NCBI GenBank assembly: GCA_017445845.1
Contig: JAFSRY010000025.1
Coordinates: forward strand, 1 to 64,000
Reading direction: 5' to 3'
Length of the DNA stretch: 64,000 bases
Origin: Prevotella sp.
GTDB taxonomy: Bacteria; Bacteroidota; Bacteroidia; Bacteroidales; Bacteroidaceae
Below, piece by piece: positions 44,283 through 64,000 of this stretch (the first letter of the stretch is position 1; every line of letters starts with the position of its first letter). The notes below the pieces were generated by a model. That model did no database searches, was not told the origin of the DNA, and worked only from the letters and a program-made list of their open reading frames with translations. Both the position numbers and the translations under genes were made by a program.

Positions 44283-45290
44283 CTACCTGACGTTTTTGAT
44301 TGACTCACGCTTGACGATGGTTGGGCTCATGAGGAGCTGCACGTCGGGCAGTGTCTTGTTGTCTATCTCCTTCATGAGCAGTTTGACGGCGGCTGTGCAG
44401 ATACTGTCGATGGGTTGCGCCATGCGCGTGATGGGCGGGTTCATGAAGTCCAGATAGCTGTTGTCGTCGAACGAGATGAGCGAGATGTCCTGCGGGATGC
44501 GCTTGCCCACTTCGCGCAGGGCCTTGATGGCTCCCAGCAGGATGGAGTTGTTCAAGGTGAAGATGGCGGTGGGCGGTTCGGGAGCGTGGATGCATATCTT
44601 CGTCTCGACATATCCGTTCTGTATCGAGAAGTCGTCGCCGCTGACGGTGAGGTTCACGTCGCCGGCTTCGGCAGCGGCATCGATCACTCCCCTGACGCGT
44701 TCTTGCGTGGTGATGGCCGACAGGACACCTTGTATGCAGTGGATGTTGCGGTGGCCCATGCCGATAAGCTGCTGCATGGCCATCTTGGCACCCTCGTAGT
44801 TGTTGGTGGAGATATACGACAGACCTGCGTCGTTGAAGTAGCGGTCTATCTGAATGAGGGGCACGTGTCTGGCCACCTCCTGCAGGTTTGCCGGGTCAGG
44901 CGAGCAGGGAGCGATGAGAATACCGTCGACGTTCCTGTCCAAGAGGGTGTCGAGTGCCTTGCGCTCCAGATCCGTGTTTTCCATCGAGGCGAGCACCGAG
45001 ACCACATAACCGTACTTATACGCCTTGTCGATGATGACCGCCGAGAGGTGGCCGAAGAACGAGTAGTTGATGTAGGGCACGATGAGTCCGATGGACTTTG
45101 TCGTCTGATTGCGCAAATTTTGCGCAATCACGTTCGGCCTGTACGCCTGTTCTTCGCACGCCTGCAGGATGGTCTGCACCGTCGTGGCACTGATACGGTA
45201 ATCCTCGGCCTTTCCATTCAGCACGCGGGATATGACGGCCTTTGAATAGCCTGTCGCCCTTGCTATATCTTCAAGTGTTGTTCTGCTCAT
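44283..45290 (-). CDS. LacI-family transcriptional regulator of the adjacent PUL
   Basis: The 335-residue protein has the LacI plan. An N-terminal HTH with hinge helix (TTLEDIARATGYSKAVISRVLNG ... YRPNVIAQNLR) is followed by a type I periplasmic-binding core of about 270 residues (IGLIVPYINYSFFGHLSAVI, GILIAPCSPDPANL, ISFDDNSYLDF). The start at 45290 opens the HTH; upstream codons to 45350 lie in the promoter. It is divergent from the ribosyl-type PUL, and a perfect 16-bp palindrome overlaps that PUL's promoter, so it most likely represses it until a sugar such as ribose binds. A weaker site in its own leader (GCAATCGTTTCC, 45327-45316) suggests autoregulation. Confidence 0.93.
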   Translation of the reverse strand: MSRTTLEDIARATGYSKAVISRVLNGKAEDYRISATTVQTILQACEEQAYRPNVIAQNLRNQTTKSIGLIVPYINYSFFGHLSAVIIDKAYKYGYVVSVLASMENTDLERKALDTLLDRNVDGILIAPCSPDPANLQEVARHVPLIQIDRYFNDAGLSYISTNNYEGAKMAMQQLIGMGHRNIHCIQGVLSAITTQERVRGVIDAAAEAGDVNLTVSGDDFSIQNGYVETKICIHAPEPPTAIFTLNNSILLGAIKALREVGKRIPQDISLISFDDNSYLDFMNPPITRMAQPIDSICTAAVKLLMKEIDNKTLPDVQLLMSPTIVKRESIKNVR

Positions 45291-45355: not shown

Positions 45356-45428
45356 CGGATAAAACATGAAAAATTCATTTTTTTCTGTTTTTTTTTGCAT
45401 TTTATTTGTTAGTTTCACTTAAAATAAC

Positions 45429-45451
45429 TAACTTTGCACAAACGTTTGTGC
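45429..45451 (+). promoter_or_regulatory. PUL promoter overlapped by perfect LacI-type operator
   Basis: TAACTTTG at 45429-45436 fits TAnnTTTG. GCACAAACGTTTGTGC at 45436-45451 is a perfect 16-bp palindrome with the CG-centred AACGTT core typical of LacI/GalR operators. It shares one base with the -7 element and covers the expected transcription start, so repressor binding would block initiation. The leader then runs about 110 bases to the ATG at 45562. Confidence 0.75.
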
Positions 45452-45561
45452 TACAATATTTTCTTTTCAGTCTGTAAAAAGACCTCGAAAAAAAATCGCT
45501 TAAATATATATATAAGGTACGCGCGAAGAATATAAAACTCATACAACCCTAACTATTGCGA

Positions 45562-46997
45562 ATGAAACCTTTTAAGTCACACCTAAGAATGTCATATATA
45601 TATATATATATGCAGCGTTTAGTTTTGGGGCCTGTCAGGAGGATTTAGACCTTACTGTCAGCCAGCCTCATGCCACAGACTCTTCTCGGGAGATTGTTTT
45701 CCGTGATTTCTCACCCAAAGAAGGTGCCGTCCGAACCCAATTCTACATCACCGGCAGCAATTTCGGCACCGACCCCTCAAAGATTCATGTCAGCATCGGC
45801 GGTCGCGAGGCCAAGGTCATCGGAGCCAACGGCCAGACCATCTACTGCATGGTACCGAAGCGTGCCTACAGCGGCGAGGTGAAGGTGAGCATCGAGGATG
45901 CCGGGGGCAACGTGGTGGCCTCCCACGTCTTCGACGACACCTTCGACTACCACAAGAAGACCACCGTGGGCACCCTCATCCGCAAGGTCGACGAGCGCGG
46001 ACTGGGCTTAGGCAACATCGCCGGTCCCATCGAAGAGGCTGCATTCCAGACGGGAGCCTTCCTGCGATACAACTATAAGGAAGGCGAATACGACGAAATC
46101 ATCTGCGGCGGCTGGAACAGCGGCATCCACATCGTCGACTTCATGAAAGGTACTTTCGACCTGCTCATCCCCTATCAGCACACGCAGATGCGCACCTTCG
46201 ACTTCACCGCCGACTGCGACACGCTGCTCATTCCCGACGACAACTACGACGCCTACAGCAACGCCCTGCCCAACATCTACTATTCCGTACGCAGCGAGGG
46301 CTTCGGGCGGCTACGCCCTTATCACTACGGTCCGTGCGCCTTCGGCGTGCTGTCAACGCCCGACCATCATCTGTTCTATTCCACCTGGAACCGTGGTGCC
46401 ATCGTCAAGGCCAACGGCACCTATAACGCCGCCACGAAGCAGTGGGAGGACAAGACACTCTTCGAGGTGGCCACCTTCATGCGTGCCGGCAATGGTATGC
46501 GTATGCACATGATCCTCCATCCGTCAGGCAAATTCATGTATATCCTCGGCCCCGCCATGATGGCCATACTCAAGTCGGAGTATGATGCCCAGAACCACGA
46601 GTTCCTCTACCCCACGGTACTCTGCGGTGCCCCCGAGGCCAGCGGCTATGTCGAGGCCACGGGCAGCATGGCGCGTTTCAGCCAGTTCCTGCTGCAAGGC
46701 GTCTTCGTGAAGAACCGCGACTACGAGCGTCAGGGCAAGGAGGACATCTACGACTTCTACCTTTCCGACCCCTACAACCACTGCATCCGCCGCATTACAC
46801 CCGAAGGTTCCGTCTCGCTCTTTGCCGGTCGCAGCAACTCAACGGCCGACGGCAGCATCTTTGGCTACGTAGACGGCGACCCGCTGAAGGAAGCCCGCTT
46901 CTGGCAGCCTCAGGGCATCACCTACGACGAACGCAACGAGACCTTCTACGTGGCCGAGTGGGACAATCACTCGCTCCGCTATATCACAACCGAATAA
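45562..46997 (+). CDS. IPT/TIG surface lipoprotein, out of frame at an (AT)9 tract
   Basis: The body of the gene reads in one frame from about 45612 to 46997, with an IPT/TIG Ig-like domain (FSPKEGAVRTQFYITGSNFG, KIHVSIGGREAKVIG) and then an NHL-like propeller (EIICGGWNSGIHIVDF, YDFYLSDPYNHCIRRIT, EARFWQPQGITYDE, FYVAEWDNHSLRYIT). That frame has a stop at 45573 and no start codon before 45849. The only good start, ATG at 45562 (MKPFKSHLRMSYIYI), runs in another frame to a stop within 70 bases. The two join if one AT unit is lost from (AT)9, giving a lipoprotein signal ...SYIYIYAAFSFGAC. Proteins of this kind just before susC are surface glycan-binding proteins. As assembled the gene is off; it may be phase variable. 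Confidence 0.75.
45594..45611. repeat. (AT)9 microsatellite in signal-peptide codons
   Basis: Nine AT units lie inside the codons for the hydrophobic core of the lipoprotein signal. Eight or eleven units keep the ATG at 45562 in frame with the IPT/TIG domain; nine units do not. A shorter (AT)5 run is present in the leader at 45504-45513. Confidence 0.85.
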
Positions 46998-47016: not shown

Positions 47017-50000
47017 ATGAAAAGAGTATTCCTCATCCTCACCCTGCTGACTGCCGTCATAGGCACTCATGCACAGGATATACAGTTGACGGGAACCGTC
47101 GTCGACGAGCAGAAAGTCCCCCTCGTGGGTGTCACGGTCGCCATTAAAGACCAGCCGGGCATCGGTGCCATCACCAACATCGACGGGGTCTTCACGATGA
47201 AGACGCCCGCCCATGCCACCCTCATCTTCAGCTACATCGGCTTTGAGAAACAGCAGATTGACCTGAAGGGGCGCACGTCGCTGCTGGTCGTCATGGAGGA
47301 GAGCCGCGAGACCGTCATCGACGAGGTGACCGTCACCGGCCTTGGCAACCGCAAGAAGATTACCGTCACCGGTGCCGTGACCACCGTCGACCCTTCCGTG
47401 CTGAAGACTCCTACGGCCAGCCTGGCCAACGCCCTGGCCGGCAACGTGCCGGGCATCATGGCCATGCAGACAACGGGTAAGCCCGGCGACAACGTCTCTG
47501 AGTTCTGGATTCGCGGCATCTCCACCTTCGGTGCAGGCTCCAGTGCCCTGGTCCTGGTCGACGGCTTTGAGCGCGACCTCAACGAAGTCAACGTCGAGGA
47601 CATCCAGTCGTTCTCCGTATTGAAAGACGCCTCCGCCACCGCCATTTACGGTTCACGCGGTGCCAACGGCGTCGTGCTCATCACCACCAAGCGCGGTGCC
47701 GAAGGGCAGGTGCGCATCAATGCCAAGGGAGAATATTCGTACAGCTTCCGCACCATGACACCCGAACTCATCGACGGCGTCACCTATGCCCGCATGAAGA
47801 ACGAGGCACTGACCACCCGCAACCAGGAACGGGCCTACAGCGACGACATGCTGGCGCTCATCGGAAACGGACTCGACCCCGACCTGTTCTCCAACACCAA
47901 CTGGATGGACCTCATCCTCAACGACGGTGCCCCCACCTACCGCGCCAACTTCGATGTCAGCGGCGGCGGCTCGCTGGCCCGCTACTACCTCTCCGGTTCC
48001 TACGTCGAAGAGGGCGGCATCTACAAGGTAGACCGCGAACAGAAGAAAGACTATAACACCAATGCCGACTACCACCGATGGAACTATCGCATGAACGTCG
48101 ACGTGAACATCACCAAGACCACGCTGCTCAGCCTCGGCGTGTCGGGGTCGCTCGACAAGAAGAACTCCCCCGGCGGATGGAACGAGCACATCTGGAGCTC
48201 GGTGATGGGGCAGGACCCCATCTCCATCCCCATCGTCTATTCCAACGGCTACATCCCTGCCACCGGCGTTGCCAACCGCCAGAACCCCTGGGCCCTCATC
48301 ACGCAGTATGGCTATGAGGAATACTGGCGCAACCGCATCCAGACCACCGTGAACCTCAAGCAAGACCTTGACTTCATCACCCCCGGCCTGGTGTTCTACG
48401 GACGCTTCGGCTTCGACAACTCCAGCACCAACAGCAACGACCACAACAAGCAGCCCGAGACGTGGATGGCCCAGCGGCTGCGCGACAGCGAGGGCAACCT
48501 GGTATTCACCAAGATGACCAACGAGGTGCTGATGTGGATAGAGTCGCACTCCTACGGCGAGCGCAAGGAGACGCTGGAAGCCGAGTTGCACTGGGACCGC
48601 ACGTTTGCCAGGAACCATAAGGTGGGAGCCGTGCTGAAATATTCCGTCGACAAGACGGTCAACACGTCGGAGAACACCAGCAACACCTACATCCAGAACA
48701 TCGACCGCCGTCACCAGGGACTGGCCGGACAGCTCACCTACGGCTACAAGATGCGCTACTTTGCCGACTTCAACTTCGGCTACAACGGCTCGGAGAATTT
48801 TGCCAAAGGCCACCAGTTCGGTTTCTTCCCCGCCGCCTCGGCCGCATGGAACATTGCCGAAGAACCCTGGGTGCAGGCACATGCCCCGTGGATGGACATG
48901 CTGAAGGTGCGCTACAGCTACGGCAAGGTGGGCAACGATTACATGACCGTGCGCTTCCCCTATCAGCCGTCGTTCAAGACCTCTGCCGCCTACGGCTACG
49001 ACTACCGCGATTTCGTAACCGGCAACGAAGCCGTCGACCCGCGGGCCATCGGCTCGTCAGGCGGTCTCTACGACGGTCTGACCTACGCCGTAGCCGCCTC
49101 GAAGGATGTCACCTGGGAAGTGGCCAAGAAGCACGACCTCGGCGTCGACTTCGCGCTGCTGGGCAACAAGGTCAGCGGCACCGTCGACCTCTTCTCCGAA
49201 CGCCGCGACGGCATCTACATGACGCGCAACTACCTGCCCGCCATCATCGGCCTGACAAACCTGAACAGCCAGCCTGCCGCCAACTTCGGCTCCGTCAGCT
49301 CGCAAGGTTTCGACGGCAATGTGGCCTTCAACGAGAAGATGGGCAAGGTAGACGTCACCCTGCGTGCCAACATGACCTACAGCAAGAACAAGATAGAAGC
49401 GTACGACGAAGAGATGAGCCGCTACCCCTACCGCATGTACAGGGGCTTCCGCGTCAATCAGGCCCGTGGTCTCATTGCCGAAGGACTCTTCACCTCCTAC
49501 GACGAGATACGCGACAGTCCGCTGCAGACCTTCGGCGACTATGCGCCCGGCGACATCAAATACAAGGACGTCAACGGCGACGGACTCATCGACGACAACG
49601 ACGTCGTGCCCATCGGAGCCACCACCAAGCCCAACCTCATCTACGGCTTCGGTGTCTCGGCCCTGTGGAAAGGTTTTGATGTCAACGTCCACTTCCAGGG
49701 GGCAGGCAAGTCCACCTTCTTCATCAACGGCTACGGCGTGCGCCCCTTCAGCGGCAGCGACTGGGGAAACATCCTGACCGATGTCGTCGGCAACTACTGG
49801 TCGCTGGGCGTCAACGAAGACCCCGATGCCCGCTATCCGCGACTCACCTACGGCAACAACAGCAACAACTACCGCAACTCCACCTTCTGGCTGCGCGATG
49901 GCTCCTACCTGCGTCTGAAGACCCTTGAGATAGGCTACACCCTTCCACGGAAGATGCTCTCGAAGGCACATATCACCAATCTCCGCGTCTACGGCATGGC

Positions 50001-50118
50001 CACCAACCTGCTCACCTTCTCGAGCTTCAACCTGTGGGATCCCGAAATCGGCAGCTCTACGGGGCAGGAATACCCCCTTTCGCGCGTGTTCACCCTGGGC
50101 TTCACCGTGGGACTGTGA
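47017..50118 (+). CDS. SusC-family TonB-dependent transporter (second pair)
   Basis: The 1033-residue protein has a signal peptide (to about residue 19, GTHAQ) and a carboxypeptidase-like domain (DIQLTGTVVDEQKVPLVGVTV). A TonB-box region (VIDEVTVTGLGNRKK), a plug with ISTFGAGSSALVLVDGFERD and IYGSRGANGVVLITTKRG, and a barrel ending FTLGFTVGL follow. With the SusD protein encoded 61 bases downstream it should import the ligand of this locus, proposed here to be a ribose-containing compound. It starts 19 bases after the IPT/TIG gene, so the two share a transcript. The gene is conspicuously rich in C- and G-ending codons. Confidence 0.95.
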   Translation: MKRVFLILTLLTAVIGTHAQDIQLTGTVVDEQKVPLVGVTVAIKDQPGIGAITNIDGVFTMKTPAHATLIFSYIGFEKQQIDLKGRTSLLVVMEESRETVIDEVTVTGLGNRKKITVTGAVTTVDPSVLKTPTASLANALAGNVPGIMAMQTTGKPGDNVSEFWIRGISTFGAGSSALVLVDGFERDLNEVNVEDIQSFSVLKDASATAIYGSRGANGVVLITTKRGAEGQVRINAKGEYSYSFRTMTPELIDGVTYARMKNEALTTRNQERAYSDDMLALIGNGLDPDLFSNTNWMDLILNDGAPTYRANFDVSGGGSLARYYLSGSYVEEGGIYKVDREQKKDYNTNADYHRWNYRMNVDVNITKTTLLSLGVSGSLDKKNSPGGWNEHIWSSVMGQDPISIPIVYSNGYIPATGVANRQNPWALITQYGYEEYWRNRIQTTVNLKQDLDFITPGLVFYGRFGFDNSSTNSNDHNKQPETWMAQRLRDSEGNLVFTKMTNEVLMWIESHSYGERKETLEAELHWDRTFARNHKVGAVLKYSVDKTVNTSENTSNTYIQNIDRRHQGLAGQLTYGYKMRYFADFNFGYNGSENFAKGHQFGFFPAASAAWNIAEEPWVQAHAPWMDMLKVRYSYGKVGNDYMTVRFPYQPSFKTSAAYGYDYRDFVTGNEAVDPRAIGSSGGLYDGLTYAVAASKDVTWEVAKKHDLGVDFALLGNKVSGTVDLFSERRDGIYMTRNYLPAIIGLTNLNSQPAANFGSVSSQGFDGNVAFNEKMGKVDVTLRANMTYSKNKIEAYDEEMSRYPYRMYRGFRVNQARGLIAEGLFTSYDEIRDSPLQTFGDYAPGDIKYKDVNGDGLIDDNDVVPIGATTKPNLIYGFGVSALWKGFDVNVHFQGAGKSTFFINGYGVRPFSGSDWGNILTDVVGNYWSLGVNEDPDARYPRLTYGNNSNNYRNSTFWLRDGSYLRLKTLEIGYTLPRKMLSKAHITNLRVYGMATNLLTFSSFNLWDPEIGSSTGQEYPLSRVFTLGFTVGL

Positions 50119-50179: not shown

Positions 50180-52267
50180 ATGAATAAGAAACCACAAATT
50201 ACGATGACTGGGTCGTACATCCATGCTGCAGCGACCTGCTGCGCCGTGCTGGCAGGACTCCTTGTCATGTCGGGATGCACCGGCTATCTTGATGAGGAAA
50301 AGTACTTCCGCGACCTGCAGACAGAAAAGCGCATCTTCTCGAAGAAAGACTACAGCGAACAGTGGCTGGCGGCCTGCTACAACATGCTGCTGGGCGACAA
50401 CCTCGAAGCCGAGGCCCACCGCGTCAACTCCGTCACCAACTTCTCTGACGACATGGTGTTCAACGAAGGTCTGAACGAAGGCCGGCGCGGCTCCCTCTTC
50501 CGCAGCTGGAAGCTCGGCGAGTATCAGTATATTCAGGAAGAGATGAAGTATTTCTGGCGTTCGTGGCAATTGTCATACGCCGGCATCCGGCAGGCCTCTA
50601 TCCTCATTCACAACATCGACATCAACGAGGAACTGACCCCCGCCGAGATTACCGACATGAAGGGTCAGGCCCGTTTTGTGCGAGCCTACCTCTACTGGCT
50701 GCTGCTGAAGAAGTACGGTCCCTGCCCCATCATGCCCGACGAGGGTGCCGACTACTCGCTCTCCTACGAAGAAATTTCCTATCCGCGTATGCCCTACGAC
50801 AGCGTGGCCAATTACATCGCCCGCGAGATGGAGCAGGCCGCCCGCGAACTGCCCATGACGCGGACCGTCATCGGGGCTGGCCGACCCACACGCGGTGCCG
50901 CCCTGGCCCTGCGCGCCAAAGTGCTCATCTACGCCGCCAGCCCCCTGGCCAACGGCAACGCAGAGATGGCCGACTTCACCGACAACAACGGGCGTCCCCT
51001 GATTTCGCAGACTTATGACGAGCGCAAGTGGGCACGCGCTGCTGCTGCCTGCCGCGACCTCATCGACTATTCCGAGCAGAACGGGCAGCTCTATCAGCTG
51101 CACATCGCCTACAAGGTGGAAAATTCCACCGACTACGCCTACCCCCAGACCATCGAGCCTCCCTACCATCCCGAGTACTCCGAGAAGAAATTCCCCGACG
51201 GCTGGGCCGACATAGACCCCTTCGAGTCCTACCGCTCGGAGTTCAACGGCGACGCCCTCGTCACGCAGTGCAAGGACATCATCTTCTCCCGCGTCAACAA
51301 CGTCCGCGACAATGGCAGCACCGCAAGTATCGCCAACAACACCCGTCTGGCCTCCCACCAGCTGCCAGCCTCCTGCGGTGGATGGAACTGTCACGGACTC
51401 ACCCAGAAGCAGGTCGATGCCTACGCCATGGCCGACGGCACTCCCTTCGACACCGAGCACCGTCCCACAGGCTTCACCACCGCCGCCAATGCCGCCAGCC
51501 ATCCCTACGACCACCTGGGCAACAACGTCAGTATGCAGTACGCAAACCGCGAGCCACGCTTCTACGCCTCCGTCGGCTTCAGCGGCGACTATTGGGCCTG
51601 CACCAGTGCCAACAATCAGGCCAACCGCAACGTGCAGGTGTTCTACTATCGAGGACTGATGGACGGACGGCAGAATGCTTCCGAACGTTGGCAGCTCACA
51701 GGCATCAGCATGAAGAAATACGTCAACCCCGCCGACTGCATGGTTGACGGCGGCACCATGCACGTCGAGGTGGAACCTACCATCCGCTACGCCGACATCC
51801 TGCTACTCTACGCCGAAGCCCTCAACGAGCTCACCACCTCCCACCAGATGCCGTCGCTGAGCGGACAGACGTACACCGTCAGCCGCGATGAGACCGAGAT
51901 GCGCCGCGCCATCAAGCCCATCCGCATGAGAGCCGGCGTCCCAGAGTACGCTCCCGAGGTGTTTGCCGACCGCGACCTGCTGCGCCGTGCCATCAAGCAC
52001 GAGCGGCAGATAGAATTCCTCGGTGAGAGCCAACGCTACTACGACCTGCGCCGCTGGAAGGATGCGCCACAGGAAGAGGGCACGCCTATCTACGGCTGCA
52101 ACGTCAACATGAACAGCGCCCATGCCGCCCAGTTCTACGTGCCCACCCGCATCACCGACGTGCAGTCCAACTTCTCGCCGCGCATGTACTTCTGGCCCGT
52201 ACTGAAGTCAGAGCTGCGCCGCAACGCCAACCTCACCCAGGCACCCGGATGGGAAACGTATGATTAG
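50180..52267 (+). CDS. SusD/RagB-family lipoprotein (second pair)
   Basis: The 695-residue lipoprotein (LLVMSGC) has the SusD helical scaffold: GYLDEEKYFRDLQTEKRIFS, YAGIRQASILIHNID, KGQARFVRAYLYWLLLKKYG and the C-terminal HERQIEFLGESQRYYDLRRWKD that is typical of RagB/SusD. It binds ligand outside the cell and gates its partner SusC. A start at MTGSYIH, eight codons in, is possible but the longer form keeps a basic n-region. Confidence 0.95.
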   Translation: MNKKPQITMTGSYIHAAATCCAVLAGLLVMSGCTGYLDEEKYFRDLQTEKRIFSKKDYSEQWLAACYNMLLGDNLEAEAHRVNSVTNFSDDMVFNEGLNEGRRGSLFRSWKLGEYQYIQEEMKYFWRSWQLSYAGIRQASILIHNIDINEELTPAEITDMKGQARFVRAYLYWLLLKKYGPCPIMPDEGADYSLSYEEISYPRMPYDSVANYIAREMEQAARELPMTRTVIGAGRPTRGAALALRAKVLIYAASPLANGNAEMADFTDNNGRPLISQTYDERKWARAAAACRDLIDYSEQNGQLYQLHIAYKVENSTDYAYPQTIEPPYHPEYSEKKFPDGWADIDPFESYRSEFNGDALVTQCKDIIFSRVNNVRDNGSTASIANNTRLASHQLPASCGGWNCHGLTQKQVDAYAMADGTPFDTEHRPTGFTTAANAASHPYDHLGNNVSMQYANREPRFYASVGFSGDYWACTSANNQANRNVQVFYYRGLMDGRQNASERWQLTGISMKKYVNPADCMVDGGTMHVEVEPTIRYADILLLYAEALNELTTSHQMPSLSGQTYTVSRDETEMRRAIKPIRMRAGVPEYAPEVFADRDLLRRAIKHERQIEFLGESQRYYDLRRWKDAPQEEGTPIYGCNVNMNSAHAAQFYVPTRITDVQSNFSPRMYFWPVLKSELRRNANLTQAPGWETYD

Positions 52268-52294: not shown

Positions 52295-53302
52295 ATGAAG
52301 ACATTAGCCAAAGCCATTTGCGCCCTGACCATCATCGCCTCGCTGACGGCCTGCAACGACGAATGGAAAGACGAACTATACGAACAGATGGTGTCACTCA
52401 AGTCGCCCGACAACAGCGAGGGCGTCTACGACATCTATCTGCGCTACAGCGACAGCGGTGAAGCCACCTACCGGCTGCCGGTCATCATCAGCGGCACGCG
52501 CGACAACGACCGCGACTATGACGTGCGCATCAGCGTGGACAACGACACGCTGACCCTCTTCAACCGCGAGAAATACCTCGACCGCACCGACCTCTACTAC
52601 CGACAGCTGGAGGCAGACCACTACAGCCTGGGCAACGGCCACTGCCACATACCGGCAGGCAGCAACACCGAGCCCTTCGTCATCACCTTCAACCTCAGCG
52701 GCATCGACTTCGTGGACAAGTGGATACTACCCTTGAAGATAGTGTCCGACCCCGCCTACGTCATCAACACCTACAAAGGACGCGGCAAGGCCCTGCTCAA
52801 CATCAACCTCTTCAACGACTTCTCCGGCACCTACTCGTCGACGGCCATGAACATCTACTTCCAGGGAGAGAACACCTCGCCCAGCGTCGTTGACAAGCGT
52901 ACGGCTCGCGTCGTCGATGCCAACACCATCTTCATGTACGCAGGAGTAACATGGGAAGAAGACATCGACCGCCGCGACTACAAGATGCTCATACACTTCG
53001 GCGAGGGCACGCCCGACGAAGAAGGCAACATCACAGGAGCCCTCACCCTCGAAGCTGCCGACCCCGCCAACCCCATCGCCCTGCGGGCCACCGGAGAGTG
53101 CACCTACGAGATCCGCCGGGTGGCCGACCCGCAGAAGCCCTATCTCATGCACTACTACGTGGTGCTGCACCTCAACTACACCTATCAGGACATCACCACC
53201 AACCCCGACTCACCCATCACCTACCGCGCCACAGGCTCGATGACGATGGAACGCCAGATCAACACCCTCATACCCGATGAAGACCAGGCCGTGCAATGGT
53301 AG
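52295..53302 (+). CDS. Surface lipoprotein of the DUF1735/DUF4361-like SGBP type
   Basis: The 335-residue lipoprotein (IIASLTAC, Cys20) follows susD by 27 bases. Its first half (VYDIYLRYSDSGEATYRLPVIISGT, YDVRISVDND) has the Ig-like pattern of DUF1735/DUF4973 domains and its second half (NLFNDFSGTYSSTAMNIY, NPIALRATGECTYEI) resembles DUF4361. This combination is a common third gene in SusC/SusD loci, where it acts as an extra surface glycan-binding protein. No enzyme motif is present. Family naming is from general resemblance. Confidence 0.7.
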   Translation: MKTLAKAICALTIIASLTACNDEWKDELYEQMVSLKSPDNSEGVYDIYLRYSDSGEATYRLPVIISGTRDNDRDYDVRISVDNDTLTLFNREKYLDRTDLYYRQLEADHYSLGNGHCHIPAGSNTEPFVITFNLSGIDFVDKWILPLKIVSDPAYVINTYKGRGKALLNINLFNDFSGTYSSTAMNIYFQGENTSPSVVDKRTARVVDANTIFMYAGVTWEEDIDRRDYKMLIHFGEGTPDEEGNITGALTLEAADPANPIALRATGECTYEIRRVADPQKPYLMHYYVVLHLNYTYQDITTNPDSPITYRATGSMTMERQINTLIPDEDQAVQW

Positions 53303-53556: not shown

Positions 53557-55413
53557 ATGAAAAAATGGTTTACAACAGCCGCTCTCACGCTGACGGCCAC
53601 CGCCGCCCTTGCACAGGGAGCACAGACACTCGAGACCATCGTCTCGCAAACACAATGGGGAACCCAATGGGGAAACATGGTGCCCATTGACATGATGAAC
53701 AACGGACAGATGCAGGTGCTCACCGGTGCCGCACACGTATGGGGCAACGAAGCCCCCTTCGCCACCGTCCTGATGAAGGATGGTGACAACTGGGTGGAGA
53801 TCGCACCTTTCAGCACGGCCAACGACCGCCCAAGCTATTCCGTCTGCGACATGAATGGCGACGGCATCATGGACGTTGTCGTCTCTGAATCCCTCAACAC
53901 TGCTGGGACCCAGGGTATCTTCCTCGGACGCGGCGACTGCACCTTCGAACGTGCCGAGATAACCATCGTCGACGCAGAAGAGGGACTGCCTGCAAACTTC
54001 GAAAACCCCTTCAGCAACTTCGCATTCATACAGAACTCCTTCGTGGCCGACTTCAACAACGATGCCCTGCCTGACATCGTAGGCATCGGAAACAACGAAA
54101 ACTACGTCGTGCTGCTCAACCAGGGAGACCTGAAATTCAAGCCCGTCTACTTCGATGCCGGAACAGAGTACGGAGGTAACGGACACCAGATGTGGCAGAC
54201 CTGCGTAGCCGTGGCCGACCTGAACAACGACACCTATCCCGACATCGTGGCGTCCTTCTGGAAAATTAACGTAGGAGGCGGACAAGGCCACGACCGCGAA
54301 TGCTTTACCGAAGTCTACCTGAACGACGGAACAGGCACACACTTCACCCGCACCTATCTTGCTGACACCACCGTCAGCTCGTGCAACGGAGGCGTTGCCC
54401 TGGGCGACCTCAACAACGACGGATTCATCGACATGGTCATCAACGGCAACGGCGGCCTCTATGCCGGAACACCCTATGCCATCGAGGAAACCGGCAACGA
54501 CTATACCGCCGTCTGGGACCAGGCACACGTATGCCTCAACGACGGCACTGGCCACTTCAAGCTGGCATCGAAGGAAGACTTTGACCGTCCCCGCGTCCGC
54601 CCCTATAACAGCGGACAGAACATCATCAGCCTCTTCGACTGGGACGGCGACGGACAGCTCGATATCGTATTCAACGGACATACGCCCGAAGACGGTACCA
54701 ACGTATGGGATGCAGGCTACTGCACCGGTTATGTATACCTGAACAACCAAGACGGTAAGCCCGGCAAGTTCGCCCGTAAATACTACTATGCAGGAGGTTC
54801 CGAAGGCTCATGCTGCCTGATGGACTGGGACGGCGACGGAAAGAAAGACATCCTCGCCACCGGCTATCTGCGCTGCGATAAGTTCGGCGACATCATCAGC
54901 CGCAGCTTCTCCGTCTCGAAAAACAACGAGGCAAGCACCCCCGCACCCGCTGCCCCCGGCAACCCCAAGGCAACCGTAGAAGCCAATAAGGTGACGCTCA
55001 GCTGGGAGGCTTCCTACGGCGCACCCGCCAGCACCACCTACGAGCTATACATCAAGAACGCTGAAGGCACACTGCTCGGCAACTGCCGCGCCTATATCGA
55101 AGGCGAGAACGAGGGACTGCGCAAGACTGAAGCCTTCGGCAACCTCGGCACCAACAAGACCATCACCTACACACTGCCCGACGGCAGCTACGAGTGGGGT
55201 GTGCAGGCCGTCGACGGACGCCGCACAGGCTCAAAGTTCGCAAAAGGCAACTTTACCATTGTCGCAAACGGCATTCAGGAACGTCAGATGGCAGAGACCG
55301 CACAGAGCGTCGCAAGATACAATGTTGCAGGTCAGCAGGTTTCAGCCCGCATGAAAGGCGTGCAAATAGAAAAACTTGCCGATGGAACGATTAGAAAAGT
55401 TGTTAATAAATAA
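53557..55413 (+). CDS. Secreted FG-GAP/VCBS propeller protein of the PUL
   Basis: The 618-residue protein has a signal peptide (1-20, AALAQG) and at least six FG-GAP/VCBS calcium loops (DMNGDGIMDVVV, DFNNDALPDIVG, DLNNDTYPDIVA, DLNNDGFIDMVI, DWDGDGQLDIVF, DWDGDGKKDILA), predicting a beta-propeller. A fibronectin III-like module (KVTLSWEASYGAPASTTYELYI) and a tail ARYNVAGQQV...RKVVNK end the protein. Compared with the homologue at 10296-12725 it lacks the N-terminal jelly-roll, but the C-terminal region is nearly the same (YELYI.....GTLLGNCRAY). It may bind glycan or scaffold enzymes at the surface; no active site is visible. A strong terminator follows. Confidence 0.8.
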   Translation: MKKWFTTAALTLTATAALAQGAQTLETIVSQTQWGTQWGNMVPIDMMNNGQMQVLTGAAHVWGNEAPFATVLMKDGDNWVEIAPFSTANDRPSYSVCDMNGDGIMDVVVSESLNTAGTQGIFLGRGDCTFERAEITIVDAEEGLPANFENPFSNFAFIQNSFVADFNNDALPDIVGIGNNENYVVLLNQGDLKFKPVYFDAGTEYGGNGHQMWQTCVAVADLNNDTYPDIVASFWKINVGGGQGHDRECFTEVYLNDGTGTHFTRTYLADTTVSSCNGGVALGDLNNDGFIDMVINGNGGLYAGTPYAIEETGNDYTAVWDQAHVCLNDGTGHFKLASKEDFDRPRVRPYNSGQNIISLFDWDGDGQLDIVFNGHTPEDGTNVWDAGYCTGYVYLNNQDGKPGKFARKYYYAGGSEGSCCLMDWDGDGKKDILATGYLRCDKFGDIISRSFSVSKNNEASTPAPAAPGNPKATVEANKVTLSWEASYGAPASTTYELYIKNAEGTLLGNCRAYIEGENEGLRKTEAFGNLGTNKTITYTLPDGSYEWGVQAVDGRRTGSKFAKGNFTIVANGIQERQMAETAQSVARYNVAGQQVSARMKGVQIEKLADGTIRKVVNK

Positions 55414-55546: not shown

Positions 55547-57943
55547 ATGAAAAACCACATCATTGCAATTGCCATCCTGTTGCAGTTGGCCGTCGGAATG
55601 GCAGGTCAGAACGAGCCGAGTAAGGCTCAGGAGAATGTGAGAACGCTCTTTCCGCTGGATGAGATTCGCGTGACGGATGCCCAGTTTCTGCATATTCAAG
55701 AACTGAACCATCAGTATCTGCTCACGTTGGAGCCCGACCGCCTGCTGTCGAATTTCCGCAGGGAGGCTGGACTGACACCGAAGGCCCGGCCTTATCCTGG
55801 ATGGGAAGATGGCCGGGGCGGTCTGCTGGGCCATATGATGGGGTTCTATCTGTCGTCCATGTCGATGATGTATCAGACAACGAAAGACGAGGCCATTGCC
55901 GACCGACTCCGCTATGCTGTGGCAGGTCTGGCAGAGTGCCAGAAGACCCACGGTGACGGTTTCCTGTCGGCCACATTGATGGGGCGACACCTGTTTGAGC
56001 GCGTTTCGACCCACGACTTCACGACGGACGCTGCCCACATCAACGGCGTGTGGGAGCCAACGTACGTCATCAACAAACTGATGCTCGGTCTCTACGACGC
56101 ATATGCATGGGCTCACATCAATCAGGCCAAGGATGTGCTCATCGGAGTAGCCGACTGGTTCGGACAGTCGGTAATGGACCATCTCGACCACGAGGAGATG
56201 CAGAAACTGCTATTCTGCGAGCACGGCAGCCTGAACGAGTCGTATGTAGACGTATACAGGCTGACGGGCGACCACCGCTACCTGGCCTGGGCGCAACGGC
56301 TGAACGACGAAAAGATGCTCCTGCCTCTACAGGAAAACCGCGACATCCTCAACGGTTGGCATGCCAACACGCAGATTCCAAAATTTACGGGCTTCAACAG
56401 CATCTACCGCTATACAGGCGATGAAAACCTCTACAATGCAGCCCGCAACTTCTGGAATATCGTAACAGGCAAGCATACTTGGGTGAACGGTGGCAATAGC
56501 ACCGGCGAACACTTCTTTGCCGAGGACCAGTTCAAGACGCGTGTCACCAACGACGTAGGACCGGAGTCTTGTAACTCGGTGAACATGATGAGGCTGACGG
56601 AAAGTCTCTACGAAACGGATGGAAGGATGGACCGCATCGACTACTACGAGCGGGTGCTCTACTCGCACATCATTGCTAACTACGACCCTGTGGAAGGCAT
56701 GTGCGTCTACTATACGCAGGTTCGCCCCGGCCACTACAAGCGTTATCCGACGAAGTACGAGTCGTTCTGGTGTTGTGTGGGTACGGGTATCGAGGCTCCC
56801 GGCAAGTTTGGTAAAATGATCTATGCCCACGACAGCGAGACGCTCTATGTGAACATGTATCTGGCTTCGGAGCTGAACTGGCAGGAGCGTGGTTTCAGAC
56901 TGACGATGGAGTCGGGTTTCCCCGATGAAGACCATGCCCGGATGGTGGTGAGCACGAAGGGCGTGCGGCAGGCTATCGCCCTGCGCGTGCCGAAATGGGT
57001 GACGCCCGGCTCGTTCACGGTGAAGGTGAACGGCCACCGGCAGCGGACAGCCGTCGTCGACGGTTACGTTCGTCTGAACCGCACGTGGAAGAACGGCGAT
57101 CGCATCGACGTAGACTTCAAGCCTGAGCTGCGTCTGGAGTCGGTGCGCGGCACCGACCGCTACGAGGCCTTCGTCTACGGCCCCGTTGTCCTGGGTGCCA
57201 GTCTGCCCAACGTCAACCTGACCGACGAAGACGGTCCTGACTGGCGTATGCCCCACGGCCAACAGGCCCACGAGCGCATTCCCATGAGCGAGGCTCCCAT
57301 CCTCTACGGCAGCACGGAAGACATTCTCCGCCACACCAAGCGTGAGAAAGGGTCAGAGCTGAAGTTTGTCTATCAGGCCGATGGCGAGCAGCCGGTGACG
57401 CTGATTCCCTATAACCGCATCCACTTCACACGCTATGCCATGTACTTCCTCCATGCCAACGACAAGGCCGACTACTATCAGACGATGGCCGACGGCAGCA
57501 AGTATGAGGACCACGATGCCGAGCTGAACGGCGCGGCAACGGACTATGTCATCATCGGCGACGGAGCGTCAGAGCAGGCTCACGCCATGCAGGAGGTAGA
57601 CAGCTATTGCATGAGGGTGACACTCAACAAGATGTTCCGTCAGGCCCGTGGCGGCGGCTACTTCATGTATGAACTGAAGGGAGAACCCGGCAAGGCGTGC
57701 ACGCTCTATCTGGGTCACCGTGTGATGGACAACGAGGGTTATGCCTTCGACGTGAAAGCCAACGGCCGCATCGTGAAGTCTTACGACAGTGCGGGCAGCA
57801 CACCCGTCACCAGCTACAAGGCCGACCGCATTGCCATCCCTGCCGAACTGATGACCGACGGCCGTGTGACCATCAAGGTGGAAGCCCGCTGTATGCAGCA
57901 GTCGACAGAGATATTCGACCTTAAACTGTTGAAAGATTTTTAG
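55547..57943 (+). CDS. GH127 glycosidase (beta-L-arabinofuranosidase family)
   Basis: The 798-residue secreted protein has a signal peptide (1-20) and a GH127 (alpha/alpha)6 barrel. The cysteine-zinc site of the family is complete: Glu340 and Cys342 in GPESCNS and Cys409-Cys410 in ESFWCCVGTG, corresponding to the Glu, Cys and Cys-Cys of the characterised arabinofuranosidase HypBA1, where one Cys is the nucleophile. Beta-sandwich domains follow in the last 330 residues. Known GH127 members release L-arabinofuranose, but the family is broad. In this locus a furanoside such as ribofuranoside is also conceivable, which is inference. A small AT-rich inverted repeat (55497-55520) precedes it. Confidence 0.9.
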   Translation: MKNHIIAIAILLQLAVGMAGQNEPSKAQENVRTLFPLDEIRVTDAQFLHIQELNHQYLLTLEPDRLLSNFRREAGLTPKARPYPGWEDGRGGLLGHMMGFYLSSMSMMYQTTKDEAIADRLRYAVAGLAECQKTHGDGFLSATLMGRHLFERVSTHDFTTDAAHINGVWEPTYVINKLMLGLYDAYAWAHINQAKDVLIGVADWFGQSVMDHLDHEEMQKLLFCEHGSLNESYVDVYRLTGDHRYLAWAQRLNDEKMLLPLQENRDILNGWHANTQIPKFTGFNSIYRYTGDENLYNAARNFWNIVTGKHTWVNGGNSTGEHFFAEDQFKTRVTNDVGPESCNSVNMMRLTESLYETDGRMDRIDYYERVLYSHIIANYDPVEGMCVYYTQVRPGHYKRYPTKYESFWCCVGTGIEAPGKFGKMIYAHDSETLYVNMYLASELNWQERGFRLTMESGFPDEDHARMVVSTKGVRQAIALRVPKWVTPGSFTVKVNGHRQRTAVVDGYVRLNRTWKNGDRIDVDFKPELRLESVRGTDRYEAFVYGPVVLGASLPNVNLTDEDGPDWRMPHGQQAHERIPMSEAPILYGSTEDILRHTKREKGSELKFVYQADGEQPVTLIPYNRIHFTRYAMYFLHANDKADYYQTMADGSKYEDHDAELNGAATDYVIIGDGASEQAHAMQEVDSYCMRVTLNKMFRQARGGGYFMYELKGEPGKACTLYLGHRVMDNEGYAFDVKANGRIVKSYDSAGSTPVTSYKADRIAIPAELMTDGRVTIKVEARCMQQSTEIFDLKLLKDF

Positions 57944-57987
57944 GGTGTGTTCTATTTCAATACGTCATGTATAAGAAATAATTTAGA

Positions 57988-60972
57988 ATGCTAATCACTG
58001 TCTCGTCTGTTAGTTTGTCTAAAAAAATACAGCCGGCAAGGTTGCTTCTCGCCATTGTGCAGTTCTTCCTCTTGCCTGGCCATGTGTCTGTGGCTACAGC
58101 ACAGACGCTATGCATCAACGAGGTGATGTCGGCCAATATCGACGAAGTGCTGTCGCCGGCTGTCAATTTCGACGGGTGGATTGAGGTCTTCAACAAGGGC
58201 AGTGTGCCTTTGAACCTTACGGGGCTATGGTTGAGCGACGATGCTGCCCATCCTAAGAAATGGCGCATCGGCAGTGGTTTCTCCGCAGTTGCAGCCCAGG
58301 GCTTTGCCACCATCTTCTTCGACCACAATGACATCGACGGCCGTCAGGCTCCTTTCAAACTCGATGTCGACGGCGGCACCCTGTTGCTGAGCAATCAGGT
58401 AGGCGGCCTGATAGACCGTGTTGACTACCCTGCGGCCGTACCCCACATGGTCTACGCCCGTCGCTCCGACGGTGGCGACCAGTGGGGGATGACGGCCACG
58501 CCGACACCAGGTGGCTCAAACCGTCGGGCTGTCTTCGCCTCGGCGCAGGCGGAGGCTCCGCAGGTGAGCCTGGACGACCAGCTATTCACGGGGTCACTGA
58601 CCGTAAGGGTGACGGTGCCCAAAGGAGCCACGCTTCGCTATACCACCGACGGCTCGCTTCCCACCCTTACCAATGGTGCGACGAGCACCGACGGCGTCTT
58701 TACGTTCGTTCCCACCCGGTGTTTCCGCTTCCGCTGTTTCAAGGAAGGCCTCCTGCCCAGCGAGGTGGTGACGCGCAGCTATATACAGGCCAACAAGGAT
58801 TATACTACGGGGCGCGTCCTCTCCGTCGTCACCGACCCACGCTACCTTTACGACGACCAGATAGGCATCATGGTGAAGGGCAGCAACGGTCGCACGGGCA
58901 ACGGACAGGCTGAGCCCTGCAACTGGAATATGGACTGGCAACGTCCGGCCCACTTTTCGCTCCTCGACACATCGGGACACGAGGTTTTCAGTCAGGACGT
59001 GAACATCCAGATGTGCGGCGGATGGAGCCGTGCCTACGAGCCTCACTCCTTCAAGCTGAAGGGCAACAAGAAGTATGGACAGGGCAAGACGCTCGACTAT
59101 CCGTTCTTCACGGCAAAGCCCTACATCAGAAACCGTACGCTGCAAGTGCGCAACGGCGGCAACGACAACTACTGCCGGCTGAAGGATGCGGCCCTGCAGA
59201 CCATCATCCAGACCTCGGGGATTGATATCGACGTGCAGAGCTACGAGCCCGTGCATGTGTTCCTGAACGGGAGATACACCGGCACGCTGAACATGCGCGA
59301 GCCCAATAACAAGGACTTCGTCTTTGCCAACTACGGATGGGACGACGACGAGATAGACCAGTTTGAGATGTCGCCCGACTCGGGCTATGTGCAGAAGTGC
59401 GGTTCGAGGGAGTCGTTCCAGCGCCTCTACGACCTGACGAGCCAGGCTGCCGACGAACAGACATGGAACGAAATCGTCAGCCGTGTCGATATCGACGAAT
59501 ACATCAACTACATGGCCATGCAGCTCTATCTGGGTAACGACGACTGGCCCCGGAACAACCTGAAGGGCTTTGCCCGCAAGGATGGCGGACGCTACCGCTT
59601 CGTATGCTACGACCTCGACATGGCCTTCAACCGTTCTTCGAGCATGTTCACCCACTTCGCCCAGATGCAGACGTGGACCTTCGACTGGCTGTTCGACCGG
59701 CTGACACGGCTGACGAAAGAGATCGAGATGGTGACCATCTTTCTCAACCTGCTGCAGAACGATGAGTTCCGCCGGCGTTTTGCCACCGTCTTCTCGCTGA
59801 TGGGTGGCAGCGTGTTCGAAGCATCGCGCTGCGAGGCTGTCGTCGACTCTCTGGCGGCCCGTGTGCGGCCGATGATGGTGCAGGGAAACACACAGCCCGA
59901 CCCGACGGCCCAGACGCTGAAAGATAAGCTCAGAGACCGCATGCCTAAGATGATGAAGGCCCTGCACGACTTCCAGCCCATGCAGCTCGGCGAGACCATC
60001 CTCAGGACGCTGACGCTGCAAAGCCGGCAGAGGGGAGCCCGTCTCTATCTCAACGGCGAACTTATCCCGACAGGCTATTTCAACGGACAGGTGTTTGCTC
60101 CCGCAAAGGTCAGCGCAGAGGCACCGGCGGGCTATCGCTTCAAGCACTGGGAGGAGCTTCGCAGCGGCCATGTATACTCTTCGCAGCCTATGGTGCAGCT
60201 GCAGGCGTCCGACCTCAGCCTCGTGGCCGTCTTCACGCCCGATGAAGCCCTCGGCGGCGACTTCATGCCCGTCGTCATCAACGAGGTCAGCGCCGGCAAC
60301 GACGTTGCCGTGAGCGACTACTTCAAACGCAGCGACTGGATTGAGCTTTACAACCGCACGTCCCAGCCCGTTGACATAGCAGGCTGGCGGCTGTCGACCG
60401 ACGGCGGGCATGGGTACATAGCGCAGGGCGACGGGGTCGCCTCGACCATTATTCCGCCCTACGGCTTCTGCATCGTGTGGTGCGACCGTCGGGAGCCGCT
60501 GTCACAGCTGCACTGCGGCATCAAGCTTCCCGCCGCCGGCGGCAGTGTAGAACTGACAACGGCCGACGGCATGCGGAGCGACATCCTGCACTATACGGCC
60601 CACGACGGCAACGCCTCCGTAGGCCGCAGCCCCGACGGTGGCGATAGGACGTATGTCTTTTCGCTGCCCACCATCGGCAAGCCAAACCTCAGAAACAGCT
60701 ATGCACAGGCATGCGGAAACGTCCCTGCGGCTCTCGACCGAACCATCGGGGCACAGAAGGCAGAGCTGACGGTGCTGCCCGGACGGCTCATCGTCAGACA
60801 CAACGGCCACAGCCCCCTCACGGTTGCCCTATACGCCATTTCCGGCATCCGGCTCTGGACGGCAACCATCCCTGCCGACGAGCAATACGCCGAGTTCAGC
60901 ACGAACAGCTTCCCACCGGGATGTTATATTCTCCAAATGGGAGATGAGAAAACAAAAATCGTTACGAAGTAA
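57988..60972 (+). CDS. Secreted CotH-kinase protein with two lamin-tail domains
   Basis: The 994-residue protein has a long signal peptide (about 1-38, SVATAQ). A lamin-tail domain follows at about 42-155 (CINEVMSANIDEVLSP, DGWIEVFNKGSVPLNLTGLWLSDD), then a chitobiase-C-like Ig module (VRVTVPKGATLRYTTDGSLPT). The CotH-type kinase domain at about 290-610 has VHVFLNGRYTGTLNMREP, NDDWPRNNLKGF and the metal-site-like FVCYDLDMAFN. A second lamin-tail domain lies at about 757-880 (PVVINEVSAGND, RSDWIELYNRTSQPVDIAGW), followed by a C-terminal beta module. CotH of Bacillus phosphorylates coat proteins; Bacteroidota relatives have unknown targets. Only one start is reasonable. Confidence 0.82.
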   Translation: MLITVSSVSLSKKIQPARLLLAIVQFFLLPGHVSVATAQTLCINEVMSANIDEVLSPAVNFDGWIEVFNKGSVPLNLTGLWLSDDAAHPKKWRIGSGFSAVAAQGFATIFFDHNDIDGRQAPFKLDVDGGTLLLSNQVGGLIDRVDYPAAVPHMVYARRSDGGDQWGMTATPTPGGSNRRAVFASAQAEAPQVSLDDQLFTGSLTVRVTVPKGATLRYTTDGSLPTLTNGATSTDGVFTFVPTRCFRFRCFKEGLLPSEVVTRSYIQANKDYTTGRVLSVVTDPRYLYDDQIGIMVKGSNGRTGNGQAEPCNWNMDWQRPAHFSLLDTSGHEVFSQDVNIQMCGGWSRAYEPHSFKLKGNKKYGQGKTLDYPFFTAKPYIRNRTLQVRNGGNDNYCRLKDAALQTIIQTSGIDIDVQSYEPVHVFLNGRYTGTLNMREPNNKDFVFANYGWDDDEIDQFEMSPDSGYVQKCGSRESFQRLYDLTSQAADEQTWNEIVSRVDIDEYINYMAMQLYLGNDDWPRNNLKGFARKDGGRYRFVCYDLDMAFNRSSSMFTHFAQMQTWTFDWLFDRLTRLTKEIEMVTIFLNLLQNDEFRRRFATVFSLMGGSVFEASRCEAVVDSLAARVRPMMVQGNTQPDPTAQTLKDKLRDRMPKMMKALHDFQPMQLGETILRTLTLQSRQRGARLYLNGELIPTGYFNGQVFAPAKVSAEAPAGYRFKHWEELRSGHVYSSQPMVQLQASDLSLVAVFTPDEALGGDFMPVVINEVSAGNDVAVSDYFKRSDWIELYNRTSQPVDIAGWRLSTDGGHGYIAQGDGVASTIIPPYGFCIVWCDRREPLSQLHCGIKLPAAGGSVELTTADGMRSDILHYTAHDGNASVGRSPDGGDRTYVFSLPTIGKPNLRNSYAQACGNVPAALDRTIGAQKAELTVLPGRLIVRHNGHSPLTVALYAISGIRLWTATIPADEQYAEFSTNSFPPGCYILQMGDEKTKIVTK

Positions 60973-60990
60973 TCCATAAAACATATCATC

Positions 60991-62505: not shown

Positions 62506-62521
62506 AGTTGACGAGTCAACT
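62506..62521. repeat. 16-bp palindrome after the ARH gene
   Basis: AGTTGACGAGTCAACT is a perfect palindrome with seven-base arms and a two-base centre, starting one base after the stop codon. The GTTGAC word recurs as AAGTTGAC twice at 63506-63521 after the ribokinase gene. It may act as an RNA hairpin or protein site; the repeat nature suggests the former. Confidence 0.5.
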
Positions 62522-62586
62522 AAAAAGCTAAGCTTTCATGAGAACTAATAGAAGTCAGTGACTTTCGAAATATACACGTAAGGAAA

Positions 62587-63507: not shown

Positions 63508-63521
63508 GTTGACAAGTTGAC
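63506..63521. repeat. Tandem AAGTTGAC octamers
   Basis: Two adjacent copies of AAGTTGAC overlap the ribokinase stop codon, another short-period repeat at a gene end. Confidence 0.5.
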
Positions 63522-63548
63522 ATCTAAATAACTAAAAACCAAATAAAT

Positions 63549-64000
63549 ATGTTTATCATCAACAGTTATGCCCTTGCCGTGGTGCTCTGCGTAGTTACCA
63601 TGCTGTGCTGGGGCTCCTGGGGAAACACCCAGAAGCTGGCAGCCAAGAGCTGGCGTTATGAATTGTTCTATTGGGATTATGTCATCGGCATCGTGCTGTT
63701 CTCCCTGCTGATGGGGTTCACACTCGGCAGCCACGGCGACGCCGGGCGCCCCTTCGTGAGCGACCTGCAACAGCTGGCACCAGCAGCCGTTTGGAGTGCC
63801 CTGCTCGGGGGCATCATCTTTAACGCATCCAACATCCTGCTGAGCACCTCCATATCGCTGGCAGGCATGTCGGTGGCCTTTCCTATAGGTGTCGGTCTGG
63901 CACTGGTGCTGGGTGTCTTCAATACCTACCTCTTTGCGCCCAAGGGCAACCCCGTGATGCTCTTCGCAGGAGTGGCATTGGTGGTGCTCGCCATCATCTT
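63549..64000 (+). CDS. GRP-family sugar transporter (RbsU/GlcU-like), cut by window end
   Basis: An open frame from ATG at 63549 runs past the window edge; about 150 residues are visible. It shows several membrane helices (LAVVLCVVTMLCWGSWG, YVIGIVLFSLLMGFTLG, WSALLGGIIFNASNILL, VAFPIGVGLALVLGVFN, VMLFAGVALVVLAIIF). CWGSWGNTQK near the N-terminus is typical of the glucose/ribose porter (GRP) family of the drug/metabolite superfamily. It would move ribose or a similar monosaccharide across the inner membrane. It directly follows ribokinase, as expected for a ribose uptake pair. Confidence 0.85.
   Translation, partial: MFIINSYALAVVLCVVTMLCWGSWGNTQKLAAKSWRYELFYWDYVIGIVLFSLLMGFTLGSHGDAGRPFVSDLQQLAPAAVWSALLGGIIFNASNILLSTSISLAGMSVAFPIGVGLALVLGVFNTYLFAPKGNPVMLFAGVALVVLAII

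What the first reader, a model, noticed from the sequence alone, without database searches (positions are those of the whole stretch)
45562..45640. (AT)9 tract in signal-peptide codons: probable phase-variable surface glycan-binding lipoprotein
Seen: ATG at 45562 opens MKPFKSHLRMSYIYI, then (AT)9 at 45594-45611 leaves it in a frame that stops at once. The IPT/TIG protein body lies in the frame reached if one AT unit is removed, producing a continuous lipoprotein signal ending FSFGAC. Known: slipped-strand change of short repeats switches surface genes in many pathogens, while Bacteroides mostly uses DNA inversion. Inference: the first PUL gene is switched on and off by AT repeat number, altering surface binding without touching SusC/SusD. 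The repeat itself codes the hydrophobic core, so it may also tune the signal's strength.
Basis: partly seen in the sequence, partly recalled or inferred. Interest (0 to 1): 0.85.

Follow-up and report, generated by a model that had tools for sequence, protein, structure and literature searches.

The report
Probable AT-repeat switch in lipoprotein gene
The first gene of a gut-type bacterium's sugar-use cluster carries a slippery nine-unit AT repeat in its export-signal codons that puts the otherwise intact gene out of frame in this assembly, so it looks like an on/off switch caught in the off position, though only read or strain data could prove that it switches.

Summary
ATG 45562 is followed by (AT)9 at 45594-45611 and reading stops at TAG 45646-45648; the IPT/TIG-NHL lipoprotein body is open in another frame (45576-46994). 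No other run in this 2.46-Mb, 75.5% complete assembly reaches six AT units; 16 of 398 genus genomes, this one included, hold (AT)9.

The body looks alive: no second lesion, codon-position GC like its neighbours', promoter and palindromic operator upstream, SusC 19 bases downstream. None of 39 distinct homologues has a dinucleotide run of five units near the start.

A new comparison: 13 other secreted-protein genes in congeners (LptE, SusD, SusC-like, GH26, T9SS plug and others) carry (AT)6-8 inside the signal peptide, all 13 readable in frame (one only from a GTG start). A Tyr-Ile signal core is thus ordinary; the window's longest copy is the one clear out-of-frame case (L132 unresolved). Best reading: an AT-coded signal peptide that grew long enough to slip, caught OFF; switching is plausible, not shown. 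Rivals: recent plain frameshift, assembly miscount. The claim that SusC/SusD are untouched is unsupported: the broken gene heads the operon, so polarity is possible. No reads or second strain could be examined.

The parts
44283..45290 (-). LacI-type regulator, divergent (ATG taken at 45290; the ORF list gives a TTG at 45350)
   Evidence: Pfam LacI and Peripla_BP_3; start read from the sequence
45405..45436 (+). Bacteroides-type promoter TTTG-N20-TAACTTTG
   Evidence: Pattern match; 6 such matches in the window against 0.36 expected from shuffles; consensus recalled
45436..45451 (.). Perfect 16-base palindrome GCACAAACGTTTGTGC, likely operator of the LacI regulator
   Evidence: Script scan; role inferred
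45504..45513 (+). Second, shorter AT run (5 units) in the leader
45562..45648 (+). Reading from the ATG as sequenced: 28 codons and TAG
45594..45611 (+). (AT)9 tract, in the signal-peptide codons
45612..45635 (+). End of the lipoprotein signal, AAFSFGAC, in the body frame (Cys codon 45633-45635)
45576..46997 (+). Open body frame of the IPT/TIG-NHL lipoprotein (P0001), with its stop
47017..50118 (+). SusC-like TonB-dependent receptor
   Evidence: Pfam Plug, CarbopepD_reg_2
50180..52267 (+). SusD-like protein
   Evidence: Pfam SusD_RagB, SusD-like_3
52295..53302 (+). DUF4973/BT_3987-like protein
   Evidence: Pfam
53557..55413 (+). FG-GAP repeat protein
   Evidence: Pfam
55547..57943 (+). GH127 (beta-L-arabinofuranosidase family) protein
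   Evidence: Pfam
57988..63998 (+). CotH/lamin-tail protein, ADP-ribosylglycohydrolase-fold protein, ribokinase and start of a permease; perhaps part of the same locus

Best explanation
The gene codes a surface lipoprotein (IPT domain plus NHL-repeat body) at the head of a SusC/SusD locus that a LacI-type regulator probably controls. Part of its signal peptide is written as alternating TAT/ATA codons, a Tyr-Ile core also seen in other secreted proteins of the genus. Here the tract has grown to nine AT units, long enough to gain or lose units by slippage in replication. With nine units the ATG is out of frame and translation ends after 28 codons: the sequenced state is OFF. Gain or loss of units would bring start and body into one frame, so a population should hold ON and OFF cells. 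Shown: tract, frames, intact body, rarity, in-frame counterparts elsewhere. Inferred: slippage, a mixture of states, the effect on glycan capture, and a possible lowering of SusC/SusD in OFF cells by polarity.
For: Longest AT run in the assembly, no other reaching six units; absent from shuffles; rare in the genus, 16 of 398 genomes. Body open over 473 codons with TIG and NHL domains above cut-off and full-length matches to solved proteins; codon-position GC within the range of six neighbours. The homologues scanned, 39 distinct, have no dinucleotide run of five or more units from -300 to +450, so the tract is this lineage's own. Tyr-Ile signals of 6-8 units are in frame in 13 of 13 recognised cases in congeners, so a Tyr-Ile core can serve as a signal and the lost frame is new here. 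Precedents for dinucleotide switches: (TA)9-11 at hifA/hifB (PMC2651432, passages) and CT repeats in the oipA signal region (PMC10564699, passages).
Against: One assembly, apparently a metagenome bin (103 contigs, 75.5% complete; 'bin' is inferred): unit number in single molecules is unknown. No second genome of the species was found. MutS and MutL are present, which should slow dinucleotide slippage. No sign of a genome-wide repeat strategy: (CT)6 absent, and 11 of 15 runs of G8 or longer lie inside ORFs that stay open through them. 13 in-frame AT signal peptides elsewhere show that such a tract need not be a switch. In oipA, repeat number alone did not predict ON or OFF (PMC10564699). The protein departs at 19 of 96 columns invariant in 13 homologues, the most of any row, though it is also the most distant row.
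Confidence: 0.5

Rival explanations
1. Recent plain frameshift: an in-frame AT-coded signal peptide slipped once, the OFF allele rose by drift or selection in this strain, and the gene is on its way to a pseudogene; switching is of no consequence.
For: Frame is lost in the only genome seen. Two of 39 homologues also have frames that end before the end of the match, without a repeat near the start (L084, L087), so loss of such genes happens. MutS and MutL present.
Against: No second lesion in 473 codons; codon-position GC as in neighbours. A very young pseudogene would look the same, and the lesion sits in the one tract able to revert.
Confidence: 0.22
2. Assembly or consensus miscount: the real dominant allele keeps the frame and the contig is one unit off.
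For: Repeats are where assemblies err (recalled); the assembly is fragmented; all 13 recognised AT signal peptides in congeners keep the frame.
Against: 18 bases fit well inside a short read (recalled); the PUL genes scanned are otherwise long and open. The read technology is unknown, and seven other gaps over 250 bases in the ORF tiling, up to 665, were not examined for broken genes.
Confidence: 0.22
3. The nine-unit gene is expressed anyway, by slippage of RNA polymerase or ribosome on the AU repeat or by a rare start codon such as ATA within the tract.
For: The body frame is open for 19 codons upstream of the Cys; slippage on repeats during expression is known in general (recalled).
Against: No ATG, GTG or TTG lies in the body frame between the TAA and the Cys. 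The leader folds no better than shuffles (z 0.28, 121 of 200 shuffles at least as stable), so no stimulating structure is seen. A start within the tract would give a signal without the positive n-region.
Confidence: 0.06

Closest known systems
Helicobacter pylori oipA: CT repeats in signal-peptide codons (PMC10564699, passages)
   Same: Dinucleotide tract inside the signal-peptide codons of a surface protein; unit number sets the frame; early stop when OFF
   Different: CT not AT; an outer-membrane porin-like protein, not a lipoprotein of a SusC/SusD locus; variation between isolates is shown there and not here
Haemophilus influenzae hifA/hifB (TA)9-11 (PMC2651432, passages)
   Same: TA/AT dinucleotide of the same length range, surface structure
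   Different: Promoter tract that changes spacing, not frame
DNA-inversion phase variation of SusC/SusD and capsule loci in Bacteroides (PMC11868660 and PMC12632263, passages)
   Same: Bacteroidales surface glycan systems made variable between cells
   Different: Recombinase and inverted repeats; here a repeat tract and no invertase needed. I did not search the window for invertible repeats
IPT/TIG-NHL proteins of solved structure 3tc9, 4hw6, 3kya
   Same: Sequence relatives over nearly the whole body (E 6.1e-70, 3.8e-58, 1.5e-53)
   Different: Entry names are hypothetical or guessed functions; repeats in their genes were not looked at

Membership tests
Simple-sequence contingency locus (translational phase variation) | Tract at or above the length used for such catalogues (six dinucleotide units) | tested here: met
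   Nine units; cut-off from PMC6321876
Simple-sequence contingency locus (translational phase variation) | Tract within the coding start so that unit changes shift the frame | tested here: met
Simple-sequence contingency locus (translational phase variation) | Rest of the gene intact in another frame | tested here: met
   473 open codons with domains over cut-off
Simple-sequence contingency locus (translational phase variation) | Unit number differs between cells or isolates | not testable with these tools
   No reads; no second genome of the species found
Simple-sequence contingency locus (translational phase variation) | Reversible change of expression | not testable with these tools
   Needs an experiment
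oipA-type signal-peptide switch | Dinucleotide tract in signal-peptide codons | tested here: met
   Alignment with homologues places the tract in the signal region
oipA-type signal-peptide switch | CT unit in a Hop-family protein | tested here: not met
   AT unit; IPT/TIG-NHL protein
IPT/TIG-NHL lipoprotein of SusC/SusD loci | TIG and NHL domains over Pfam cut-off | tested here: met
   TIG 49.1 bits against 20.9; NHL 23.3 against 20
IPT/TIG-NHL lipoprotein of SusC/SusD loci | Next to SusC and SusD | tested here: met
   19 bases to SusC, then SusD
IPT/TIG-NHL lipoprotein of SusC/SusD loci | Binds a glycan at the cell surface | not testable with these tools
   Inferred from context only
Decayed pseudogene | Further stops or loss of coding signature in the body | tested here: not met
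   No stop; GC by codon position as in six neighbours. A very young pseudogene is not excluded

The most novel reading that the evidence does not exclude
Tyr-Ile signal peptides written as AT repeats are a standing reservoir of contingency loci in this Prevotella-like genus: secreted-protein genes sit in frame at 6-8 units, and now and then one grows past the slippage threshold and becomes a switch. In the window the switch sits at the head of a LacI-controlled SusC/SusD operon, so slippage sets not only the lipoprotein but, by polarity, the whole locus, splitting the population into users and non-users of one glycan.
Probability: 0.2. Interest if true: 0.65.

Novelty: new member of a known kind. 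Interest (0 to 1): 0.45.

Why it matters
Phase variation in gut Bacteroidales is known mainly as DNA inversion; the two reviews consulted (PMC11868660 and PMC12632263, passages only) name inversions for this order and no repeat-slippage case in the passages shown. A slippage switch at the head of a glycan-use locus would add a second route, one that inversion-finding software would not see. The set of in-frame AT signal peptides in congeners gives a ready list of loci in which to look for length variation in existing metagenomes.

Tried and rejected
RNA structure around the start as attenuator or frameshift element: not supported, the leader folds as its shuffles do (z 0.28). Genome-wide repeat strategy: (CT)6 absent; G8 or longer gives 21 overlapping matches in 15 runs, the longest 11 bases, 11 of the 15 inside an ORF of 120 aa or more that stays open through the run and four not. 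Mutator state: MutS and MutL found over cut-off. Other (AT)9-or-longer tracts as precedents: one tract looked at in each of the 16 genomes (some genomes hold more, not looked at); none but the window's lies in recognisable signal-peptide codons; three abut a start codon (L090, L103, L104) and one lies within two bases of a possible one (L100). Closer orthologues: two draws of about 400 genus genomes (the matching genomes are the same) and one scan of GTDB species genomes gave nothing above 45% identity, so unit number could not be compared within the species. The decay test by invariant columns is inconclusive because the window protein is also the most distant row. L132 (six AT units, a 245-codon frame without Pfam match on either strand) could be a second out-of-frame case and is unresolved. 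Paper searches for repeat-driven phase variation in Bacteroidales, Prevotella or SusC contexts listed no case in this order in the rows shown: 25 of 88 papers; 20 of 42; 9 of 9; 15 of 158; 4 of 4; 2 of 2; 15 of 27; 12 of 2,719, a poor search since none of the 12 holds the slippage term. The library is open-access only. A Prevotella intermedia paper (PMC5608340, passages) tells of DNA inversion and frameshifts in hsdS genes, not of repeat slippage. The reversed-pattern control shows about as many chance-like tracts (I did not tally it exactly), so I claim no enrichment of AT tracts near ATGAAA.

Full report
What is there. At 45562 an ATG opens MKPFKSHLRMSYIYIYMQRLVLGPVRRI and stops at TAG 45646-45648; nine AT units fill 45594-45611. 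In another frame, open from 45576 to 46994, lies a 473-codon reading (P0001) whose start...YIYIYAAFSFGAC, looks like a lipoprotein signal end and whose body has an IPT/TIG domain (PF01833, 5.6e-13) and an NHL repeat (PF01436, 23.3 bits against a cut-off of 20). It matches solved structures over nearly its whole length (3tc9, E 6.1e-70, residues 35-470). In the body frame there is no ATG, GTG or TTG between the preceding TAA and the Cys, and the next ATG is 45849 inside the IPT domain. So, by ordinary starts, the gene as sequenced makes no exported protein.

Is it chance? None of 100 dinucleotide-preserving shuffles of the window has even seven AT units. In the assembly (2,457,347 bases, 103 contigs, 75.5% complete) seven units occur only here. 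Five units match at 14 places; 13 are single matches, so none of those reaches six units, and the fourteenth is this tract of nine. One of the thirteen is in the leader of the same gene, 45504-45513. In the genus, 16 of 398 genomes have a run of nine or more, this one included. I looked at one tract in each: apart from the window's none is in recognisable signal-peptide codons; three abut a start codon (L090, L103, L104) and one lies within two bases of a possible one (L100).

Where it sits. The gene heads a locus: divergent LacI-type regulator, promoter TTTG-N20-TAACTTTG at 45405-45436, perfect palindrome GCACAAACGTTTGTGC at 45436-45451, the lipoprotein gene, SusC 19 bases on, SusD, a DUF4973/BT_3987-like protein, an FG-GAP protein and GH127; a CotH/lamin-tail protein, an ADP-ribosylglycohydrolase-fold protein, ribokinase and a permease follow on the same strand. 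Control of transcription (LacI) and of frame (AT tract) would thus be separate layers. An ORF tiling of the window leaves eight gaps over 250 bases; one is this gene's start, and the others, up to 665 bases, were not examined for further broken genes.

Relatives. In 398 genus genomes 53 (own included) have a match to P0001, the best other one 45% identical, on a contig of the same length as Leyella lascolaii khD1 NZ_LT556049.1 (L035/L072). The draw gave no closer one. A scan of species genomes gave 17 loci, 38-44% identical over the best segment, in Bacteroides, Leyella and Prevotella. I read the 5' ends of 26 and 17 loci; four are in both sets, so 39 distinct genes. In none is there a dinucleotide run of five or more units from -300 to +450; runs of four appear at L046 and L073. 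Two of the 39, L084 and L087, have frames that end before the end of the match, so lost copies exist without any such tract. Of the first 26, 24 show a lipoprotein-type Cys; L046 was given a start too far upstream and L024 looks like an ordinary secreted protein. The window's signal core is less hydrophobic than the mean (1.47 against 2.35, SD 0.51, n = 25, lowest 1.19) and has 3 Tyr where the 25 have 1 between them. I read this as shaped by repeat growth at the DNA level more than by protein needs (inference).

A better control. I searched the 398 genomes for ATGAAA followed within 8-38 bases by six or more AT units: 42 genomes, 43 tracts once registers are merged. All 43 were looked at (30, one). 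Thirteen, besides the window's, lie in the signal peptide of a gene: an Mfa2-like protein (L128), DUF3256 (L130, eight units), T9SS plug (L134, seven), a SusC-like receptor (L144), a POTRA protein (L150, seven), LptE (L152), a zinc metallopeptidase (L155), a secreted protein without Pfam match (L156, seven), an M28 peptidase (L158), SusD (L160), GH26 (L161, L163) and a DUF5686 protein (L162); the rest have six units. All 13 are in frame, L162 only if it starts at GTG. L158 begins MKSLHTLLYIYIAAFCLASC, much like the window's signal. The remaining tracts are in apparently non-coding DNA, antisense to a gene (L145, cobS), in genes without a signal peptide there (three look like tsaD, recalled), upstream of a start, or unclear; L132 could be a second out-of-frame case and is unresolved. 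So a Tyr-Ile core written in AT units is ordinary coding; what is special in the window is the length, nine, and the lost frame.

Dead, switching or misread? The body carries no second lesion, and its GC by codon position (0.56/0.41/0.79) falls within the range of six neighbours, so it is not an old pseudogene. It departs from residues invariant in 13 homologues at 19 of 96 columns, more than any other row, but it is also the most distant row, so this does not decide. MutS and MutL are present, so no mutator state is seen, and slippage should be slower than in a mutator. The tract exceeds the six-unit cut-off used for dinucleotides in a Campylobacter study (PMC6321876, passages); (TA)9-11 controls fimbriae at hifA/hifB (PMC2651432, passages); and CT repeats in signal-peptide codons switch oipA of Helicobacter pylori, although there the repeat number alone did not predict the state (PMC10564699, passages). 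I put a working switch caught OFF at 0.5, a recent plain frameshift at 0.22, an assembly miscount at 0.22, and expression by another route at 0.06.

Novelty. The mechanism is a known kind. The setting, a glycan-use lipoprotein of a Bacteroidota genus, was not found in the rows shown by the paper searches made (open-access library only). It would be a new member of the contingency-locus kind, closest in layout to oipA but not of its family.

Noticed in passing
L128, L130, L134, L144, L150, L152, L155, L156, L158, L160, L161, L162, L163 (coordinates): Thirteen secreted-protein genes of congeners with (AT)6-8 inside the signal peptide, in frame: a possible reservoir of slippage-prone signals.
   Followed up: partly
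L123:1483-3006 and L116:147-1559 (own genome, contigs C94 and C73): Runs of eight C (or G on the other strand) inside the signal-peptide codons of two other secreted proteins of the same genome, both in frame (MKMNVLPPPAMRNITLFMLALAALTAC and MKNTIKFFMALTLMVIIGGG).
   Followed up: no
L107:3-1511 (own genome, contig C11): Run of eight C directly after an ATG, followed by a run of A, before a second possible start.
   Followed up: no
L090, L103, L104, near 1501-1518; L100 near 1500-1518: AT runs of nine or more units lying directly before a start codon (L104 begins MKPRIIALYLPQFHPIPEND), where length could alter translation start.
   Followed up: no
window 55547-63998: GH127, an ADP-ribosylglycohydrolase-fold protein, ribokinase and a permease follow SusC/SusD: the target may be a furanose-rich (arabinose or ribose) glycan.
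   Followed up: no
L084 and L087: Two Bacteroides homologues of the lipoprotein whose frames end before the end of the match.
   Followed up: no
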